From NCBI GenBank assembly GCA_008802785.1, contig VUYT01000011.1:186001-250000 (forward strand): 64,000 nt of DNA. The letters are read 5' to 3'. The DNA is from Symmetrospora coprosmae (Eukaryota > Basidiomycota > Cystobasidiomycetes > Symmetrosporaceae). How positions within the stretch are numbered: the first letter of the stretch is position 1; the number at the start of each line of letters is the position of its first letter. The notes under the pieces were generated by a model that made no database searches, had not been told where the DNA came from, and saw nothing but the letters and a program-made list of their open reading frames with translations. Of the stretch, positions 18,288 to 49,298 are shown one piece after another. Both the position numbers and the translations under genes were made by a program.

Positions 18288-19618
18288 ATGTCTCAGTCCA
18301 TCATTGCGGGCTCGATGCTCAGGCCCGCCATCAGGTCGGCAGCAGCAGCGCAGGTGAGGGAGACGAGGCTGCAGTGGCAGCGGCCTAGACAGCCTATAGA
18401 ACAGCATGGAGGCTGACTACGGTCATCCTGCGATGCTGCCGCACCATCGCAGCCCATGCTTCGAGCGTCGATGTCGACCTCGGCGCCGCGAGCTCTTGCG
18501 ACGGCCGTCAACGAGACGAGCCAGCAGAAGCCAAAGAACCTGAAGCAGTTCAAGATCTACAGATGGGTGCGCGTGTGCACTGGCTCATGTGGCAGCACCA
18601 ACAGATAACCATATACTGACGCTCTGTGTTATGCTCCTGCTCGACAGAACCCAGACAAGCCGACCGAGAAGCCCTACATGCAGAACTACGAGATCGATCT
18701 GTCGTCGTGCGGGCCGATGGTCCTCGACGCGCTCATCAAGATCAAGAACGATGTCGACCCGACCCTCACTTTCCGGTGCGTCCACGCTGTCGTGTCGCAT
18801 TGTGCTCTGCCTCTCTCAGGAAACAGCTGACAGTTTCACCGGACTTTCCATCTTCCGCCCGTGCCGGTGCTCTCGATTGCCTACTCATTCATTCGCTCGA
18901 CTGCTTCTACGACAATGCATGCATCACAGACGGTCATGCCGTGAGGGGATCTGTGGCTCCTGCGCCATGAACATCGACGGACAGAACACGCTCGCTTGCC
19001 TGAAGCGCATCAACCCAAAGGCCGGCAAGGACGTCAAGATCTACCCCCTTCCCCATAGTGCGCCAACCATCTCCCCGCATGTATCGCACGCACACACGCT
19101 GACTCGCACTACTACGCACTCTCTCTCACAGTGTTCATCGTCAAGGATCTCGTCCCAGACATGACGCAGTTTTACAAGCAGTACAAGTCCATTGAGCCTT
19201 TCCTCCAGTCATCGCCACCAGACGGCAAGGAGCACCTTCAGTCGCAGGAGGATCGCCGGAAGCTTGACGGCATGTACGAGTGCATTCTCTGCGCATGCTG
19301 CTCCACTTCGTGCCCATCGTACTGGTGGAACCAGGACGAGTACCTCGGCCCGGCAACGCTCATGCAGGCCTACAGGTGGATTGCAGACAGCAGAGATACA
19401 AAGGGAGCAGAGAGGAAGGAGAAGCTCCAGAACACGCTCAGTCTCTATCGATGCCACACCATCTTCAACTGCACAAAGACATGCCCGAAGGGTCTGAACC
19501 CGGCGAAGGTGAGCATGCTCAAGCCTTTTCAGCATCTCCTAGTGCACACTGCTGACGCCGCCTGCATCCCCTGTACCAGGCTATCGCGGCGCTCAAGCAG
19601 GAGATGGCTATGGCATGA
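18288..19618 (+). CDS. SDHB: Succinate dehydrogenase iron-sulfur subunit, mitochondrial
   Basis: Six exons. The first two encode an Arg/Ser/Ala-rich mitochondrial presequence ([28 protein letters not shown]). The ferredoxin domain begins at LKQFKIYRW and holds the 2Fe-2S ligands in [17 protein letters not shown] and LACL. The C-terminal domain holds the 4Fe-4S ligands in [12 protein letters not shown] and the 3Fe-4S ligands in [17 protein letters not shown]. Trp in [12 protein letters not shown] lies in the known quinone-site segment. The last exon reads [12 protein letters not shown] and stop. The subunit passes electrons from SDHA-bound FAD to ubiquinone in complex II. The gene ends 225 bases from MBF1, which runs the opposite way. 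Confidence 0.97.
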
Positions 19619-19842
19619 TGGTCTGATCTCTAGCGCCGGATTATCTGGCTTGCGGCTCTCATTGTCCTCCAGCCGCGGCCGTGTTGTATGCCATCTCTGC
19701 TACCGCATCATTCTGTCGCAATACAAGACGATCTCGTCTATTCAGTGCACCGCATGCGATCAGCGCCACGAACGGCTGCATGGCCAGAGACCGGTCTTGT
19801 CGTGTCACGATGCGGCTAACCGGGAGCATCTACATACGCTTA

Positions 19843-20566
19843 TCACACCGCTTTGTCCTTGTTATCTGCAGCAGCCACGACTACCTCCTGAGCCAGGCCA
19901 TCAGTATCGAATTTCGCCTCGCTGGACTGCACGCTGTCTGCGTTCTTGCCCTCTTTGGCAGCCTTCGGCTTCGTGCCAGACTTGGTCTTTGCTGTCTCCG
20001 CCGCTTTTGGCGCCTTCTTCGGCTCCTCTGTCTTCGGCTCGCCGATTCTGTCAGTGCTCCCCGTCAGCCAGACGCCGAGCTTCTTCTCGATGCGCTGAAG
20101 CAGCTTGTTATCTCGTGGGTGCCTGCCGGACTCTAATTCCGACACGACGCCTCTCTGCGCATCGACAGGTCAGCGGAGTCCGTTTGCTACTGGGGCAAGC
20201 GCATTCTGAGACGCACAGTAAGGTTCAGCGAGTTGGCAAAGTCGGGCACCTTCATTCCCTTGTCGTTCCTGGCTTTGGCGATGGCCTGGTGCAATAGACA
20301 AGACACTCGACTGCATTAGCAACTCGTGTGTGCGTTGGTGCCCTCCGAGACTTAAACAGGCTCACGCGACCGACAACGAGATCGACGGTATCTGGCGCCT
20401 TGGGCTCGTCCGAGTCGAGCTTCGCAGCAGTTTGGTTGTCCAGCCGCGCACTGAGTCCTGCCGAGCCGGGCGCCTTTTTCTGCCCCGCTTTCGCTTCGCG
20501 GCTCGCGCTCGCGCCTCCGCCTTTGCCTGCACGGCTACCGATGGTGACGGGTGTGTAGTCCTGCAT
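19843..20566 (-). CDS. MBF1: Multiprotein-bridging factor 1 (transcription co-activator)
   Basis: Three exons on the reverse strand. Exon 1 begins [18 protein letters not shown] and continues [20 protein letters not shown]. Exon 2 gives [20 protein letters not shown], and exon 3 gives [20 protein letters not shown] followed by [10 protein letters not shown]. These are the conserved N-terminal MBF1 segment and the cro-type helix-turn-helix; the family bridges bZIP-type activators and TBP. After the HTH there is an unusual tail of about 60 residues rich in Lys/Ala/Glu ([20 protein letters not shown]). An upstream in-frame ATG at 20671 would add 35 Ser/Arg-rich residues; I chose the inner ATG because the family starts there. 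The usual Trp near the N-terminus is absent. Confidence 0.85.
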
Positions 20567-40363: not shown

Positions 40364-42725
40364 ATGGGAGACATCCAGTGCGTGTGCACGGCCAGCGGGC
40401 AGCGGGCAGAGAGAGAGAGCAGGACCTGCTATTGGAGTCGCTCATCCATATCACCCGTCAATACTCCCATCCACTCTGCCCGCGCCTCGCAGCCAGCTCG
40501 CATCCCCTCTGGTCGGGCCGTATGAGGTCATCAAGCTCGCCGTCGCGCTCACTTCTGAAGCAGGCCGCAGCAGCAGCACGCCTGCCGACGACGAGGACTC
40601 GGATGCCATCATCGAGCGCATCCTCGTCGTCATAGCGAACGTAGAGAGCGGCATCGAGGAGGCGGCCCTGCTCTCTAGTGCGTTTCCGGGTCACATTCGT
40701 CTTGATGGATAGGAGCCAGCTCGCTAAATCTCCTGCTATTTCTACAGTATTGCCGCCTACAGAGGGCCTTTCTGCACGGATAGATGCTGTCGTCCCCATC
40801 TACGATGACTTCAAGGTGGCCTTCGAGCAGGTTGACGAACGCGGCGCCCATGCCGAGGACAGCGACGCGATAGCAGCCGCCAGCCAGCCCGTCCGGGCTC
40901 GTGAGGCTTGCTGCTGAGTGCAACACAGTTTACTTCCGTTCTGATACAGTACTGCGCCGCTCTTTCAGATTTCGCTGCCACCTTCACTGCTGATGGAAGC
41001 CGCTTCAAGGGCCGCGCTACCGTCCGGAACCTCGATGAACTGGAGGATCTGCTTCGCGAAACGCGTCGTCTGACGGAAATAGCGGGTGCGTTCCCGCTCT
41101 TCTCGCACTCGGTCAGCAGAACGGAGCTTGTTTCATGCCTGGCCTCATTCACCCGCAGAAAGCGAGCACCTCGACCCCTCAGCGCGGTCGCATGCCTGGC
41201 TGTCCGCGTATACTGACACCCTGCCCGAACCGGTCCGCGCGCGATCGACAACGAGTGAAAGCAATACAAGCGTCTCGAGCGCCCTGTTCTCGCTCGGCAG
41301 CAAGGCCATCGATGGCCTCCCTGCACTGGCTTCGACCTTGAGCTCATTCGGCTTCTTCTCCGGAACAAATGCGCAGCCTCCAGCAGCGAGCGAAGCAGGC
41401 TCGCGTGGATTCATCAGCGATGCTCTGTCGCATCCTCCGCCATTGCCACCGCGCCGGCCGCGAAAACCGCCGCTAGATCCGCACACGGTCGAAACGCTCT
41501 CATCCCGGCGGAGCGAGTATGTCTCGTCTGATGAGCTAAAGTGAGTCGCAGAGCTCTGTCACCAGCGCACGAGACGGACAGCTGAGAGCTCTATGGATGA
41601 TCAGAGTACACGTCTGCACTTTCAACACGAACGGCCAGTTCTATAACCCGTCTGTCCACCTGCGCGAGTGGGTCCGGCCTGAACACGAGCCAGATCTCGT
41701 CGTTGTCGGTCTCCAAGAGATGGACTTGCGGCCTGAGGTGGTGATGATTCGGCACGACCCGCTGGTCGGGGAAGCGTGGGCTTCAGCCATCTTGAAGTGC
41801 CTACACGAGCCACATCCGGATAAGGCGGAAGGTGACGCGAGAGAACCGCCGCCAGGGTACATTCTGCTAGAGACGAAGCAGCTCGCAGGGATCTGGATAG
41901 CCCTCTTTGCCAAGCAGGACCGCTTAGGGGATCTGGGCGATGTCAGCACGACGAGCGTCATGACTGGCTTTGCCGGGTTTGCGGGCAACAAGGGTGCGTG
42001 CTGCATACGGCTACGGTGAGCTACGTCTCCACCGGCCCAGCTACTGCATAACACTGACTCACGTCGCGATACGAGACAGGATACACGACAGCTACGTCCA
42101 CTTCGCGAATGCGCATCTTGCAGCCTTCCAGGACGGCGCCGACAAGCGCAATTTTGACTTTCACGACATCAGCAAGCGGGCCATCTTTGCTGCTCCATCG
42201 CCTGGCCGGCCTTTTTCGACAAGCGCACTTACAGACTGCGACCTGTGCGTCTTCTTCGGCGACCTGAACTACCGGATCGACATGCCCATCGACGCCATTC
42301 GCTCTGGCATCAAACGCGCCGACTGGATAGCATTGCTGGAGCATGACCAGCTCAAGCTGGCTAGACGGCACAAGTCCGCCTTCGAGGGATACGAAGAGGG
42401 CGAGATTGCCTTCCAGCCGACGTACAAGTTCGACAAGGGAACCGAGACGTACGATACGAGCGAGAAGCAGCGCAGGCCTGCGTACACTGATCGCGTGCTT
42501 TGGCGCACGGGCGCAATGCATGCGGACACCACGGATAGCGACAGCCATCAGGTTGAGGTACACGTAGATGAGTACGCGAGCGCGATGGATATCCGGCTAT
42601 CCGATCATAAACCCGTACTGGCGAGACTGAGGGTCACACTAGCGCGGATGGACAGGATCAAGAAGCAGGAGATCATTGATGAAATGCAGCGGCAGGGAGA
42701 TCAGCGCAGTGCAGGGCGAGAGTAA
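40364..42725 (+). CDS. Inositol polyphosphate 5-phosphatase
   Basis: About seven exons. Exon 1 is tiny (MGDIH) and is spliced to QLASPLVGPYEVIKLAVALT. The N-terminal 300 residues resemble no domain I can name, though IDAVVPIYDDFKVAFEQVDE looks helical. The phosphatase domain starts VHVCTFNTNGQFYN and continues PDLVVVGLQEMDLRPEV, GFAGNKGACCIRL, YVHFANAHLAAFQDGADKRN, CVFFGDLNYRIDMPID, FQPTYKFDKGTETYDTSEKQ, PAYTDRVLWR and IRLSDHKPVLARLRV, i.e. the metal, phosphate and catalytic Asp/His signatures of the OCRL/synaptojanin fold. The first strand reads FNTNGQ where WNVNG is usual. These enzymes remove the 5-phosphate from PI(4,5)P2 and related lipids. The splice between the second and third conserved N-terminal blocks (near 40900) is uncertain. 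Confidence 0.88.
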
Positions 42726-42892: not shown

Positions 42893-45178
42893 TTATCGCA
42901 GCCTTTTCACACTCGTCCATTGCGATGCGGAGCGAGCTTTCCGCTGCATGTCTTCCACCTCTCGGTTATTCTTGTCCTGCTTAACTCGAATGCGCCAGGA
43001 TGTTTCTGCCGCATTGATGACGGGAAGAGACCCACTCATGTTGCGAGCGATTTTAGCCAGGGTCTCTTGATACCACGGAGTCGGCCAGCGTATGGTCCAT
43101 CCTTTGAGCGTCTGAGTGTCTGACAGATCTATAACCGCTTGGCCACTTTCCGATAGCGTTACTTTGACCTGCGTCACACATTGAAAGGAACGCAGAATTA
43201 GGAGATGCCTCCCTGTCTATGAGATTTGCCCTCACCGTGTGCCACGGCGCGTGCTTCCCCGCGCGGTTGTTCGGCGGAGGAATTCCTTCTAGCAGATCGG
43301 CTCTCTGCCAGTCACGTACCACAGAAGGTGGCTGCGGACCTGTAGTTGCTGCATTGGCTGACGGCCGTGGTGGAGAATTCGTTCTGTTGTTTCCAGATAC
43401 AATCCCCGCCGTAGAGGCGGTTTGGAGGGGCGGGCGCGGAGTGGACGGCTTGATGGCAACACGCGACCCTAAAAAGGTCCATGTGGCATCCGGAGAGTGC
43501 CTGTATCGCATAAAGTCTACCTTCCGGCTGCCCAGAACTCCATGCTCGACGCAAATCTGGAAACGAGCGAGATTCGGGTCGATCTTGCCGGCCCTCCAAG
43601 CCTCTATGAGCCGGCGCATCAGTATCGGGTAGGCCTCGTCCCAGCTGAGGACCGAGCCTCGGAGCGTTTTGTTATCGGAGAGAGATAATATCGCGGTAGC
43701 GTACTCTCCAGGGCGACGGGAGCCAGAGAATCGGACCTTGATCTGTAGGACGCAAACGACATGAAGCAACGGCAGAGCGTCTCTCTTTAAACGGAGGGCT
43801 CAACTCACGTTGTGCCATCCCACAGGTCTGCCAGGGTTGTTTCCCCTCGCATCGAGACGGCTGTTGGCTTCACCAGCGTCATCGCGATCCGCCGTCCCAT
43901 TGATCCCGGCTGCCTTTGGAGGCTGCGGTCCCTTTCCGGTGTCGTGCATTTTGCTCCCACCCATTGGAGACCGGGCACTGGGAGTGACTTTGACTGGGTC
44001 GCGTCCGACGAGCAACCATGTCTTCGAACGTGTCGTTCCAGTTCCTTCGATCCAGAAACTCTTGGAGTACCGCATGTGATCGACCTGCCGGGCGCCAATC
44101 ACAAAGTGCTCGACTCGGATCTGGAACTCAAACTTTCCTTTGAATGAGCCACGAGCCCAATCTTGCTTGAGCCGCTTCGTCAACTCGGAGTAGGATTCGC
44201 TCCAACCCAATCTCCAACCGCGGAGCGTGCGATTCTCTCTGAGCGAGAGAGAGACGTCTCCATCGGGCAGGAAGTTCACAGTAATCTGGTGACGCGTGGG
44301 TAAGAGATTAATCAACGGCAGCCAAATTAGTCAAGCGAGCATGACCCACCTGGTGCCAGGCCCGCGCCGGTTCGTCCTGTATCTGAGCAGCGGCTTCTCC
44401 GGCTGTTTCTGGGTCGCGACCGAGGCTGGATTCAGCTAGGCGACGCGCTGCTGACGAGGGCGTTCCCCAGATGCTCGTGCGGCCAACTGGAGGCTGAGGG
44501 GGCGGGAAGCGCGATGGCTGGTCTCTCCTGGGAACGGGAATGAGTGCCGGGTCCATGGGAAAGATGTACGAGTTCCAGAAGCGCTTATCTACCCCAATGT
44601 CCGCGGTCTTCCACTCCGCATTAGCGCTCACGCTGGTCCGATAGGATAGTCTCAGCTTCCCATCAGGCCTGAGTAGCAGCTTGTGGGCAGGCGTCAGCGT
44701 CACTCGAATGATGAGATCAGTCGTTCGTAATGACAAGAATATATTCTTGACGATGTCGATCAGGCCTTTCGGGATGTGTATGTTGCTCGGGGTTTCCACC
44801 CACACCTTTCCCTTCATCCTCTCTTCTAACGTTGTTCCCAGCTCATCGTTGTCCGATGCTGCCCCTGAAATCCAAGTGTGCCTGGCGAAGAGCTGGCGCA
44901 AAGGAAGCAGGTGTCAACTACAGTGGGTTGTGAGAATTACCGGCCAAGCAACCTACCCAGAACTCGCTCTCGCCGGGATTCAAGCTGGACGTCCCACTTT
45001 CACCGGGGTGCCGCTTCTTTCCTTGTGGAGGTGTTGCACTACCTGAGGGAGGACTGCGTTTATTAGGAGCATTCATGCTGTCGTTCGCGACAGTACACTT
45101 GGTCAGCGAGGACAGTGGACGGTGTGGCGAGGGCGGGGTGGAATTGTCGTTGTGGTGTGCAGGATGAAGCGGAGTCAA
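42893..45178 (-). CDS. Modular repeat protein of unknown family, copy A (intact)
   Basis: Five exons on the reverse strand: 45076-44957, 44892-44350, 44285-43809, 43742-43236, 43168-42893. All lengths are multiples of three (120, 543, 477, 507, 276 nt), so every intron is in phase 0 and the protein has 640 residues (from MNAPNK; an upstream ATG at 45178 adds 34). Exon 2 is an N-domain (NIHIPKGLIDIVKNIF, HKLLLRPDGKLRLSY, RFWNSYIFPMDP). Exons 3 and 4 are two copies of one module (ITVNFLPDGDVSLSLRENRT, LRGWRLGW, FQIRVEHFVIGARQVDHMRY; and SLSDNKTLRGSVLSW, FQICVEHGVLGSRKVDFMRY). Exon 5 is a shorter terminal module (IDLSDTQTLKGWTIRW). Exons 2, 3 and 4 end in Trp-His-Gln, Trp-His-Asn and Trp-His-Thr after a Pro/Ser-rich linker. 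I recognise no known family; there is no signal peptide or membrane segment. Confidence 0.72.
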
Positions 45179-45420
45179 CCTGTTTATACAGCATCCGGCT
45201 ACTATTTGTAGTGATCAAGGTCGACATCCTGTCCTTGCTCGTGGTGCGGTGCCTGTAAGGGCGGGGTACTCCATGGGAATCGCAACGGTCAGATCTGCTG
45301 TCCGACACGGGCAACCACGCGCATCAGCTGATTGGTCGTGGATGGACGCTGATCAGTCGTGGACGGCGATCAGCTGCTCGTCAGCTGCCGGTACGTATAA
45401 TCGGAGGGACGGCGCTCGCG
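45179..45420. other. Spacer with short internal repeats
   Basis: Upstream of copy A and before the phosphatase fragment. Bases about 45331-45375 contain an imperfect tandem duplication (GTCGTGGA.GG.CG.TGATCAG pattern, twice). Confidence 0.4.
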
Positions 45421-45764
45421 TCAAGCTGGCTAGCACTGTCACTCTTAGAGTCGAGGGTTCCGAAGAGGGTGAGATCGCCATAAAGCCTACGGACAGGTTG
45501 GACAAAGGGACGGATGGGGACGATACGAGCGAGACTCAGCGGCAGCCTGTGTATATGCGCACGGATCACGTACTCTGGCGCACGGGCGCAATGCATGCGG
45601 ACGCCACGGACAGCGATAGTCTTCGTGTTGAGGTATGCGTAGACGAGTACGCGAGCGCGATGGACGTCCGGCTGTCCGATCACAAATCCGTACTGGCGAG
45701 ACTGGGGGTTAGACTAGCGCGGATGGACAGACAGGAGACCATTGGTGAAGTGCAGCGGAGGTAA
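45421..45764 (+). pseudogene. Duplicated 3' fragment of the inositol 5-phosphatase gene
   Basis: The frame reads EGSEEGEIAIKPTDRLDKGT, DTSETQRQPVY, DHVLWRTGAMHADATDSDS, VDEYASAMDVRLSDHKSVLA and ends EVQRR. It is clearly homologous to the last 125 codons of the gene at 40364-42725 (EGYEEGEIAFQPTYKFDKGT and so on), and nucleotide identity begins at TCAAGCTGGCTAG (42353 and 45421). The catalytic core upstream is missing. The fragment has changed at key places: PTYKF is PTDRL, AYTDR is VYMRTD, and DHKPV is DHKSV. It remains an open frame, so it could be expressed as part of another transcript, but no promoter or start is evident. It marks the left edge of a segmental duplication. Confidence 0.85.
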
Positions 45765-45819
45765 GATGATATCCTGCAGTGAGACGTACACATGCGCAAT
45801 CGCCGGTCGGCGAGACAGA

Positions 45820-46789
45820 TCAGTAGCCCTTTTTGATAACACCTCCGATCTTGCTGCGAGCGCGGAACGACTCGACAGTTCGCGAACTTGTGTCGCGTGA
45901 TACCCTGATCTGTAAGCTGCTGGCATCGAGCCCTCCCTTCGCTTTGCTCTTGAACTTCACGAATGCAAGCAGATCCTGATACTTCTGATTCAATACCCAA
46001 TTCAGCTGCCAACCTTGCAGAGTTGTGCTGCTGGATAGGTCGAGCTGCGGGTGGCCCCCAGCGTCAAAGGTCACTTCGATCTGCATGTACGAGAAGGCAT
46101 TTGGACTCAGCCATGCCCGTACGATCGCCACAGACAGCGACATCCGGGCGACGAACCGCATGCCAGGCGTAGGGATATCTGTTTGAGGGATCTCCTTTGT
46201 TGTCGACCGCAGCGTTTATGTCAGCTATAACGCTGGCCGCCGAGGCTTCTGGTGGTTGAGGGGCCTTGACAGGATCGACTGCAGCTGAAGATGGCTCTGC
46301 GTCAGACGAAGCTCTGAAGTGACTCGGCTGGCCTTTCGAAAAGTTTGTATCGCTAGATTCGCTTTGGAAGGGTGCTGCAACCGCGGCAGGCGACGGTGAA
46401 GTGGGAACGTGTTGGCCAAGAGCGATCCACTGTTGCTCGCTGGGGTGGGGTTTGTATCGGATCCAGTCTACCCTCCTGGGTCCTTGAACATTGTACTCGA
46501 CGCGGATCTGGTATAAGGCGCCTTCACCCAATTTGACGTCTCTCCGGGCTTGCGCCAAGCGTCGTATAAGCGACGTGTAGGTTTCCTGCCAGTCGAGTGT
46601 CCAGCCACGTAGAGTGTGGTTCCGGTCCAGCGAGAATGAGACTTGGCCATCCGGGCTGAAATTGATGTCAATCTTGGAAGCGCACAGGACCCAATCAGAA
46701 CGGCCGTCTACCCTGAGAACCGCTACGTGTCGAGACGGCTTAGGCCAACTTACTAAATGCCAACCGCGGGATCGCCCGTCCTTCGTCAT
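45820..46789 (-). CDS. Modular repeat protein, copy C (5'-truncated)
   Basis: Three exons on the reverse strand: 46789-46754 (36 nt, MTKDGRSRGWHL), 46672-46157 (516 nt), then the terminal module from near 46075 to the stop at 45820. The first exon is only the tail of the N-domain exon; the sequence just upstream, PTAGEGNMTKDGRSRGWHL, lines up with ETAGESNAWTSDGRVTGWH of copy B. The middle module (INFSPDGQVSFSLDRNHTLR, YQIRVEYNVQGPRRVDWIRY) ends YAWHA, and the terminal module (EVTFDAGGHPQLDLSSSTTL, QGWQLNW) ends GGVIKKGY. All splice junctions are phase 0. It starts 54 bases past the copy B stop, so it may be a truncated gene, or may be read together with B. Whether it makes a protein is unknown. 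Confidence 0.5.
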
Positions 46790-46843
46790 GTTGCCCTCTC
46801 CGGCGGTCGGACGAGCAGGATATCCGTCAGTGGCAGCAGCAGG

Positions 46844-48360
46844 CTACGGCGGCGCGTGTGCCTGCCCTGCCGGAGTGTGTGAATCAGGACGACTGAGTCC
46901 GTCTGGTGAGGTCGATCGCGGACGCTTCTTCTTGATGATATAGCTATTGCCAGGCGGATTGCTCCGATGTGTCTGACCATCGATCCTGTACCGATAGGAA
47001 GCGACAGTTCTGCGACTCTCGTCATCGCACGTCACTCTGATGTCGATGAGTGTAGCACTCGAGACCCGAGGAGGCGTCATCCTGGCTAAGCCCTCCAGCA
47101 CGCTGACCAGGCCTTGGTATCCGTCGGATTGCCAGTCAATAGACCATCCTTCGAGTGTTTTAGTCTGCGACAAGTCGACCGACACGTTGCCGTTCTTCCC
47201 GACGGCCAGCTTGACCTGAAAAAGCAGAGGCCGGCCAGATCATCAGTGGAGATTCGGCTACAGTCTGGCGGCTCACGTACATTGTGCCACCTAGCCTTGG
47301 CATCGTGACCCCGCCCGCTGCCCGCATCCAGAGCGGCTCGCATCAGCTGCCAGCGCACTGTAGCTGGCTGCGGACCGGAGTTGATGCCGGGCTGATTTGG
47401 GTTGCATGCGGGGGGCGACACACCCCTCGCCTGCGCTGTCTGTGGGGTCGGTGTTGCCTGACGGCTGGGGGCGGGTGACGTGATGGCAAATTTCAGCCCT
47501 AGGGGTCGCCAGGTTACCGGTCGGGCAGATTGGTCCTTGGGAGTAGAGTATCTCATCCAATCTACTCTACGCGACCACTTGACACCGTGCTCCACTCGAA
47601 GCTGGTAGACCGTGCCCGGTGGGAACTGACCGCTTCGATGAGAGCCCTTTCAGTCTCTTGGTCAGATCGTCAAAGACGTTGCCCCACTGCAGCGTCCAGC
47701 CCCGGAGCGTCTGGTTGTTCCGGAAAGAGAGACTGACGTCGCCATCTGGCGTGAAATCAACGCTGATCTGCAATCAGCAAGAGGTTTCAGCGTGAGATTG
47801 TCCTAATTGGCTTCCAACGTCGAGCACAAGAGCGCACTGACTGCGTGCCATCCTGTCACGCGCCCATCCGAGGTCCAGGCGTTGCTTTCGCCAGCCGTCT
47901 CCCGATCCTGGTACCCACTCAGGCCCGGGCCGGGCTGGGAAGCGCTGTGCCGCGATGGAGAGGGAGATCTCTCACGCGGGTTGGCGCTATCATGGTGCGC
48001 TGGGTGTTTGAACCTGGATGCAGAAGGCTTTCGGGGCAATGATGGAAGCCGGGTCTCATGTAGCTTGCGGTCGAACAGATGCTTCTCAGCTGCCGGCAGT
48101 GGGACGACAAAGTGACGCCAGACTCGAGGATCCATCCTAAAGTCGATGACGTGGTTGAGATGGCGGGGAGAAGTGCCGTATGTGGCGCGAACAAGACCGC
48201 TCTTGCGGAAGAGCAGCTTGCCAGACGCTGCAAGCGGCACCTCGAAGAAGAGCTGGTCTGCGTCATCTTTCTTCATGAGGCGTGCGACCTGGGGTACCAT
48301 CGCGTCTACCAGGGTACTGGGGATGTGAACGTTGATGGGGAGCTCAATTGTAGGCAACAT
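46844..48360 (-). CDS. Modular repeat protein, copy B (frameshifted module)
   Basis: Exons on the reverse strand: N-domain 48360-47842 (519 nt; PINVHIPSTLVDAMVPQVAR, GKLLFRKSGLVRATYGTSP, FRMDPRVWRHFVVPLP), module 47767-47281 (487 nt) and terminal module 47215-46844 (372 nt; VSVDLSQTKTLEGWSIDWQS). The module exon is one base too long for phase 0: it starts ISVDFTPDGDVSLSFRNNQT in one frame and continues QFPPGTVYQLRVEHGVKWSR in the next, with the shift in the GAAAGGGCTC run near 47648. The start is the first ATG of the N-domain exon; a proline-rich upstream exon (about 48450-48660) is possible but has no ATG that I can connect. So copy B is probably inactive, or the extra base is a sequencing error. 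Confidence 0.5.
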
Positions 48361-49298
48361 CAGAGGAGGCTGTTGAGGCTGGTCAGGAGACGCATGCAGT
48401 CGGAGGGAGAAGCCAAACTGACAAATGCTCGAGAAGGTATCAGCGGACGCACGCGGGATGAATACCTTGCGGATTGGGCAGTACGCACGCGGAAGGTATT
48501 CGGTCTGCCCGGGCTATCGAGCAGCTGGGTCACCGCAGCTCGCTTGGCTGGACCGGGTCCGGGGGGCGGTGTTGTTCTGGCTCGACGATTTTCTGGGGCC
48601 TTGGCAGTAGTAGTAGCCCTGCCTGCGGTGGACGTGGTCTGCGAGTATGTAGTGAGTCTGTGTGAGTGCCGAGGTCACAAAGTCAGAGGAGCAGAGGCAG
48701 GAAAGAAAGGCAAGCGCTGGCCGCTCGTCCCTGCATCAGTAAGAAGTGCAAAGCGACACCCGAGAGCAGGGTCCGTCGTCCAGTCAGGGCAGTGCGCGTT
48801 GTATACATTGGGGCATCGGACAGCGGGGCTCCGTCAAGGCGCAGCCGGACAGCCGGCAGACAGCTGAAGGGGGGCCCGAGGCGTTAGCAACGTATTCTGA
48901 TCAGATGTCTGCGGCACCGTCCAGTGATGCGCCGTCGAGGGTGCTTGCATACGGGTACTGCACTCGAGAACTGTAGAGCAGAGTACTGTATGGCAACAGA
49001 GACCTCGCTCCTCTCGACGATGTCACCTCCTTCGCCGCCCCCCGTCTGATTTGCCACCGACACGTGCCTCACATTCCTTGTTGTTTTCGAGGGCAGCGCG
49101 CAGACGGCACCGGGGGAGGCGAGACTCTGGCCTCTGCCTTCTGCTGCACAGCAGCGACAGCTACAGTATTGGGTGAGGACAGCGTCGAGAGAGCAGGAAC
49201 AAGGTGCGTGTGTATGTATTGTGCCAACCTTGCTGCCGCTTGTAGCGCCGTGTCCGAGCTGGCTGACCCCCTCGGACGTCGGCCTCGCCTCGCCAGAA
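48361..49298. other. Region between modular copy B and the Bud4-like gene
   Basis: Contains a possible 5' exon of copy B on the reverse strand (Pro/Arg/Thr-rich frame, about 48450-48660, without a usable ATG) and the upstream region of the Bud4-like gene. Nothing else is recognised. Confidence 0.35.

What the first reader, a model, noticed from the sequence alone, without database searches (positions are those of the whole stretch)
42893..48360. Unrecognised family built from phase-0, exon-sized repeat modules
Three adjacent reverse-strand copies share one design: an N-domain exon, one or two internal module exons and a shorter terminal module, with introns at matching places. In copy A all five exon lengths (120, 543, 477, 507, 276 nt) are multiples of three. 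N-domain and internal module exons end in Trp-His-X right before the donor. Each module has a Pro-Asp-Gly turn, a Thr-Leu-x-Gly-Trp core and an (Ile/Leu)-Arg-Val-Glu (Cys once) block followed by Val-Asp. Symmetric 0-0 exons can be duplicated or lost without a frameshift, so the number of modules can change freely (A has two, B and C one). I know no family with this pattern.
Basis: partly seen in the sequence, partly recalled or inferred. Interest (0 to 1): 0.85.

Follow-up and report, generated by a model that had tools for sequence, protein, structure and literature searches.

The report
Orphan fungal family of exon-coded modules
A fungus related to lichen-dwelling yeasts carries at least eight strongly diverged copies or remnants of one unknown gene on a single contig, built like bead strings in which each bead is one exon that can be copied without breaking the gene; what they do is not known.

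Summary
Copy A splices as described (exons 120, 543, 477, 507, 276 nt; 640 aa). Copy C has a frame break inside its internal module exon. Copy B has no N-domain and looks like a truncated tandem copy. Pro-Asp-Gly and I/L-R-V-E occur in 3 of 7 window modules each, not in every one; Trp-His-X stands before the donor at 7 of 7 junctions that lead into a module.

The family is larger: five more genes (D, E, F1, F2, G; partial models except D) lie in two other clusters on the same 616-kb contig; the best match elsewhere in the genome had E 0.108. All 22 modelled introns are phase 0. The tree indicates separate within-gene duplications of the internal module exon in D and in E. No Pfam or NCBIfam match reached significance and no fold match was convincing; the best module model is fair (pLDDT 80, pTM 0.64). 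Two protein-database searches found only a near-copy of B. The host is a basidiomycete near Cyphobasidiales.

Most likely: a lineage-specific family of strongly basic intracellular proteins, strings of an unrecognised binding module, diversifying by exon and gene duplication. Function is inferred, not shown.

The parts
44957..45076 (-). Copy A exon 1 (120 nt): basic, Ser/Pro-rich N-terminus, ends ..EFW before the donor
44350..44892 (-). Copy A exon 2 (543 nt): N-domain and linker, ends WHQ before the donor
43809..44285 (-). Copy A exon 3 (477 nt): internal module A-M1 and linker, ends WHN
43236..43742 (-). Copy A exon 4 (507 nt): internal module A-M2 and linker, ends WHT
42893..43168 (-). Copy A exon 5 (276 nt with stop): terminal module A-T with basic tail
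46754..46789 (-). Copy B first exon (36 nt, MTKDGRSRGWHL): resembles an N-exon tail, no N-domain
46157..46672 (-). Copy B internal module exon B-M1 (516 nt), ends WHA
45820..46080 (-). Copy B terminal module exon B-T (261 nt with stop)
47842..48360 (-). Copy C N-domain exon (519 nt from ATG), ends WHA
47281..47767 (-). Copy C internal module exon C-M1 (487 nt, frame broken inside the module), ends WHN
46843..47215 (-). Copy C last exon with module C-M2 (373 nt, ending just after or at its TAG as counted)
48489..48674 (-). Possible relic of copy C exon 1 (TPPPGPGPAKR.., donor GTGCGT at 48488, acceptor ending 48370); no ATG in frame. Weak, by eye
41970..42725 (+). Last part of an Exo_endo_phos2 gene (PF22669; inositol-phosphatase-like is recalled), convergent neighbour of copy A
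45421..45767 (+). Duplicated fragment of that gene's 3' end (77% identical to 42352-42701), between A and B: footprint of a duplication

Best explanation
A lineage-specific, strongly diverging gene family of a basidiomycete near Cyphobasidiales. In A and D each gene has a short basic Ser/Pro-rich first exon, an N-domain exon, two internal modules of roughly 90 residues (beta-beta-alpha-beta-beta-beta in the model) joined by Pro/Ser-rich linkers, and a terminal module; other members vary. Each module exon is bounded by phase-0 introns placed just after the Trp-His that precedes the next module, so exons can be duplicated or lost in frame. SHOWN on the sequence: anatomy of A and D, exon phases on the models, paralogues on one contig, within-gene similarity of internal modules in D and E, defects of B and C, and a duplicated piece of the neighbouring phosphatase gene. 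INFERRED: the proteins stay inside the cell, probably in or near the nucleus (basic N-termini, pI 10.4-10.6), and work as multivalent binders of protein or nucleic acid, with the modules as diversifying binding beads.
For: Copy A model. A profile from 9 modules finds genes E, F1, F2 in six-frame translations at 30.3-48.9 bits, non-family frames of the window at most 9.3 bits; rebuilt from 14 modules it finds gene G at 31.4 and 29.8 bits. Own-genome searches: every match below E 0.1 is on contig C2. D: exons 123, 555, 594, 666, 300 nt; junctions of E, F1, F2, G. Tree: D-M1+D-M2 100/99, E-M1+E-M2 99/98; terminal modules of A, B, C 84/85. In 14 of 14 module pairs the third codon position differs most. 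A and D: pI 10.4 and 10.6, no hydrophobic leader or span by a simple hydropathy scan; 14 of 14 modules net positive. Phosphatase fragment duplicated. Control: an SDHB-like exon of the window finds many basidiomycetes, so the database does hold such fungi.
Against: No transcript was available; splice models were drawn by eye to keep frame. Nuclear location and binding rest on composition only. Copies B and C look decayed. The pairs were aligned as proteins, which itself favours third-position differences. Terminal modules of D and E do not join the A-B-C terminal group, and most of the tree is unresolved. The N-domain is weakly conserved (A-C 5e-11, D-E 1.5e-5, C-D 2e-3, other pairs 0.06 or worse, in a set of six) and F2 seems to lack it. 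The control protein evolves slowly, so it does not show that a fast-evolving relative would have been found.
Confidence: 0.45

Rival explanations
1. An orphan family in neutral birth and death: tandem duplicates arise and decay, and the modules carry no shared, selected function today.
For: C has a frame break and no clear first-exon start, B has no N-domain; modules share only 14-53% identity between paralogues.
Against: A and D keep five in-frame exons each; third codon positions differ most in 14 of 14 pairs, with the alignment caveat given above; a core (LSL, TLRGW, LxW, QIRV, R-V) recurs across 16 modules, with one invariant and six nearly invariant columns.
Confidence: 0.25
2. A recognition repertoire (vegetative self/non-self recognition or defence against invaders), in which modules set specificity and exon duplication plus divergent alleles generate diversity, analogous to but not homologous with HNWD genes.
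For: A near-copy of B from a 1,028-base contig has 18 changed codons of 327 compared, 17 of them in the first 119: 14 of 91 in the module, 0 of 81 in the linker, 0 of 86 in the terminal exon; module numbers vary; the family is clustered.
Against: The preceding intron differs as much (3 of 27 codons read through it, Fisher p 0.76), so this is a divergent block or mosaic, not proof of selection on the module; one contig of unknown sample, possibly chimeric; no NTPase domain in the frames scanned.
Confidence: 0.12
3. The modules belong to a known domain family too diverged for these searches.
For: The better model is only fair and lacks the Trp-His, which comes from the previous exon; weak fold matches cannot exclude a known fold.
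Against: No Pfam hit above cut-off for 16 modules (best E 0.024); best PDB sequence E 0.1 with the 16-row profile; Foldseek best E 0.66 in the PDB and 0.28 among viral models.
Confidence: 0.2
4. The exons are chance open frames and the introns misread.
For: No RNA evidence; only mechanical frames.
Against: The same exon design recurs in D, E, F1, F2 and G far away on the contig, unseen members score well above background, codon-position pattern.
Confidence: 0.03

Closest known systems
HNWD allorecognition genes of Podospora anserina (het-d, het-e, het-r)
   Same: Fungal multigene family with repeated modules whose number changes; repeat regions are highly polymorphic (abstract and outline of PMC2873952)
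   Different: HNWD are STAND NTPases with WD repeats in concerted evolution; here no NTPase was found in the frames scanned, the modules are strongly diverged from each other and each is one exon
WD40 repeats
   Same: The stretch FSPDG to W has WD40-like spacing (by eye, against recalled WD40 sequence) and gives a summed profile hit
   Different: That hit is columns 3-25 summed over many repeats and is absent from the 6 matches of the 16-row profile; the model has a helix; no WD40 Pfam hit
Symmetric class 0-0 module exons (exon duplication and shuffling, best known in animal multidomain proteins; recalled)
   Same: Phase-0 introns on both sides, in-frame duplication
   Different: Fungal, and the intron seems to sit about three residues inside the module rather than in the linker

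Membership tests
Symmetric 0-0 exon modules | introns of the same phase on both sides of each module exon | tested here: met
   22 of 22 modelled introns phase 0; exception: copy C module exon has a frame break inside; splice sites unconfirmed by RNA; one further F2 junction tried gave no GT at the guessed place and is not counted
Symmetric 0-0 exon modules | module exons duplicated within genes | tested here: met
   D-M1+D-M2 100/99 and E-M1+E-M2 99/98; gene conversion within a gene would look the same
WD40 repeat | match to WD40 profiles | tested here: not met
   no WD40 family at E 1 or below for copy A and three exon frames or 16 modules
WD40 repeat | four-stranded propeller blade | tested here: inconclusive
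   model shows strands around one helix, pLDDT 80, pTM 0.64; fold searches weak
HNWD/NLR allorecognition genes | NACHT or other NTPase domain | tested here: not met
   no such Pfam hit in copy A or in 9 exon frames of D, E, F1, F2, G; exons of D-G outside those 9 frames were not scanned
HNWD/NLR allorecognition genes | near-identical repeats under concerted evolution | tested here: not met
   paralogous modules 14-53% identical
HNWD/NLR allorecognition genes | controls recognition specificity | not testable with these tools
   needs crosses or transformants
Small secreted proteins/effectors | secreted and under 300 aa (definition seen in a passage of PMC8355462) | tested here: not met
   A 640 aa, D 745 aa, no hydrophobic N-terminus by Kyte-Doolittle, a crude test; other members not tested

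The most novel reading that the evidence does not exclude
A non-NLR recognition repertoire in basidiomycetes: a contig-confined family of a new fold, in which phase-0 exon modules are duplicated, diverge quickly and segregate as divergent module alleles, serving self/non-self recognition or defence.
Probability: 0.12. Interest if true: 0.85.

Novelty: new variant of a known kind. Interest (0 to 1): 0.5.

Why it matters
It is a compact case of one-exon-one-module evolution in a fungus, with paralogues, decayed copies and a near-identical variant of one copy all visible. If the modules are a new fold and the variants are kept diverse by selection, it would open a recognition or nuclear binding system in a group of basidiomycetes whose relatives live in lichens. 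If not, it remains a well-documented orphan family, useful for studying how new domains arise.

Tried and rejected
WD40 membership: profile hits (best E 1.9e-9) come from columns 3-25 summed over many repeats, no single stretch passing for those chains, and no WD40 chain is among the 6 matches with 16 modules. C and B as one gene: C's last exon continues in frame past its TAG into B's first exon, but C-M2 groups with the terminal modules of A and B (84/85) and B's first exon resembles the tail of C's N exon, so B as a truncated duplicate is preferred; one gene is not excluded. N-domain as a diverged module: profile comparison gave 0.6% and 0.2% probability. A second module type in F1 and F2 (starting FW): three of five pieces related among themselves (E 3e-5 to 6e-4 in a set of five), none shown related to the WH modules. 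Link to mating loci: homeobox matches on C11, C1, C8, not C2; the STE3 search found nothing and is uninformative. Fold families: no match of weight, which excludes nothing. Literature: searches; only listings were seen for these, searches returned none, and no listed title or abstract start describes this family. That is no proof that it is not in print.
Full report
WHAT IS THERE. Copy A was rebuilt from the reverse strand: exons 45076-44957, 44892-44350, 44285-43809, 43742-43236 and 43168-42893, that is 120, 543, 477, 507 and 276 nt, introns 64, 64, 66, 67 nt, all GT-AG, giving 640 residues. Copy B is 46789-46754, 46672-46157, 46080-45820 (36, 516, 261 nt) and copy C 48360-47842, 47767-47281, 47215-46843 (519, 487, 373 nt). 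C's 487-nt exon is not a multiple of three: the first half of the module reads in one frame and the second half in another, although both halves still match the family. B has no N-domain. Its short first exon, with the sequence just before it, resembles the tail of C's N exon (TAGEGN..DGR..GWHL against TAGESN..DGR..GWHA by eye; gapped DNA alignment, not tested for significance).

THE DUPLICATION. The convergent neighbour of copy A is the end of an Exo_endo_phos2 gene (PF22669, E 4.1e-48). A 350-base piece of its 3' end (42352-42701) recurs between A and B at 45421-45767, 77% identical, and still shows a PF22669 match (E 5.1e-9). The simplest reading is that a block holding the end of that gene and a family gene was copied.

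A LARGER FAMILY. Searching the window's own genome (20.05 Mb, 77 contigs) with modules, N-domains and module-bearing exons gave matches on contig C2 only, apart from hits no better than E 0.108 on C11, C15, C19 and C30; the tool scores only its best candidates, so counts are lower bounds. The members lie in three clusters: the window (C2 about 229-234 kb), about 475-487 kb, and the last 7 kb of the 616-kb contig. A profile from 9 modules, not trained on E or F, finds E (48.9, 41.6, 37.4 bits), F1 (38.1) and F2 (30.3); non-family frames of the window score at most 9.3. The profile rebuilt from 14 modules finds gene G (31.4, 29.8 bits) and the two halves of C-M1 (46.4, 19.2), with unrelated frames at most 8.2 in the nine stretches searched. 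That makes eight genes or remnants: A, B, C, D, E, F1, F2, G. The models of E, F1, F2 and G are partial, and the start of F1 does not join in frame with its first module junction, so another intron is likely there.

EXON DESIGN. D has exons of 123, 555, 594, 666 and 300 nt. For its fourth exon I use the in-frame acceptor before position 3688 of L018 from the candidate list; the first acceptor tried there was wrong. Introns counted: A 4, B 2, C 2, D 4, E 3, F1 3, F2 2, G 2, in all 22, every one phase 0 and GT-AG, 59-98 nt. The junctions were sought where the protein pattern predicts them, so this is consistency, not independent proof; one more junction tried in F2 gave no GT and is not counted. 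Of 17 junctions leading into a WH-type module, 15 read Trp-His-X before the donor; in E two read WYD and FHK. Three junctions in F1 and F2 lead into another module type and end FWIQ, YWLK and FWVQ; the first exons of A and D end in FW and WLP. In the alignment the Trp-His directly precedes the first strand of the following module, so the exon seems to be the module shifted by about three residues. A linker motif, GPQP, stands twice in A and once in D and similar strings are seen in the C, B and E linkers.

HOW IT EVOLVES. The module tree (18 rows; 2 of 15 inner branches well supported) joins D-M1 with D-M2 (100/99) and E-M1 with E-M2 (99/98): internal module exons were duplicated, or kept alike by conversion, within each gene. 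Terminal modules of A, B and C form a weaker group (84/85); those of D and E do not join it. The rest is unresolved. In 14 of 14 compared pairs the third codon position differs most, as expected of coding sequence, but the pairs were aligned as proteins, which favours this. Identity between paralogous modules is 14-53%, while some shared flanks keep more: 76% over 206 bases upstream of D and E (80% over about 170) and 77% in the phosphatase piece. That hints at fast change of the coding part, but flanks may be kept by function or conversion and the duplications may differ in age.

RELATIVES. Full-length copy A found nothing at E 1 or better (the 7,997 candidates sharing most words were scored). 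A 16-module alignment found two proteins at E 10 or better (5,953 candidates). The database is clustered at 90% identity, so further variants may be hidden; whether the sample is a metagenome or an isolate is not shown. Of 18 changed codons, 17 lie in the first 119 of 327 (P 2e-7, region chosen after looking): 3 of 27 in intron 1, 14 of 91 in the module, 0 of 81 in the linker, 1 of 30 in intron 2, 0 of 12 in the first exon, 0 of 86 in the terminal exon. Since the intron differs about as much as the module (p 0.76), this is a divergent block next to an identical one, not by itself evidence for selection; a chimeric assembly is possible. A figure of 8e-9 printed treated all 18 changes as inside the block and is superseded.

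HOST. The control search with an SDHB-like exon of the window (residues 1-125 of frame 19131-20294) gave 98% to an unnamed protein, 90% to a Cyphobasidiales metagenome-assembled genome and 79-87% to the other basidiomycetes named among the 120 rows listed of 8,000 scored. So the host is a basidiomycete, probably in or near Cystobasidiomycetes (lineage). It is unlikely to be the Cyphobasidium genome of PMC8355462, whose basidiomycete genomes are given as 51-52% GC (passages seen), against 56-66% in 2-kb steps of this window. The database thus holds related fungi, but SDHB is slow-evolving (recalled) and says little about finding a fast family.

MECHANISM. Composition (pI 10.4 for A and 10.6 for D, 14 of 14 modules net positive, no hydrophobic leader or membrane span in A and D) and the basic Ser/Pro-rich starts of A, D, F1 and F2 (starts of E and G not found) suggest an intracellular, perhaps nuclear, multivalent binder. 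This step is inference. Recognition by analogy to HNWD genes (abstract of PMC2873952) is a lower-probability reading: the works-like claim is open, the is-a claim fails because no NTPase was found in the frames scanned and the modules are not near-identical.

Noticed in passing
45421-45767 (+): Fragment of the neighbouring phosphatase gene's 3' end, 77% identical to 42352-42701, left between copies A and B.
   Followed up: yes
46744-46435 (-): A near-copy of B from a 1,028-base ENA contig differs here at 17 codons, yet is identical in the linker and terminal exon: a sharp mosaic edge.
   Followed up: partly
L042, C2:481.9-486.4 kb: Genes F1 and F2 carry a second module type beginning FW, with phase-0 introns, not shown to be related to the WH modules.
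   Followed up: partly
L041 6970-7139 and L018 1834-2000: About 170 bases upstream of E and D, without a long shared frame seen, are 80% identical while the genes themselves are far more diverged.
   Followed up: partly
48489-48674 (-): Possible first-exon relic of copy C with plausible splice sites but no start codon in frame.
   Followed up: no
C2 end, 615826: Gene D ends less than 100 bases before the contig end; no telomere-like repeat is seen by eye in the last 300 bases printed.
   Followed up: no
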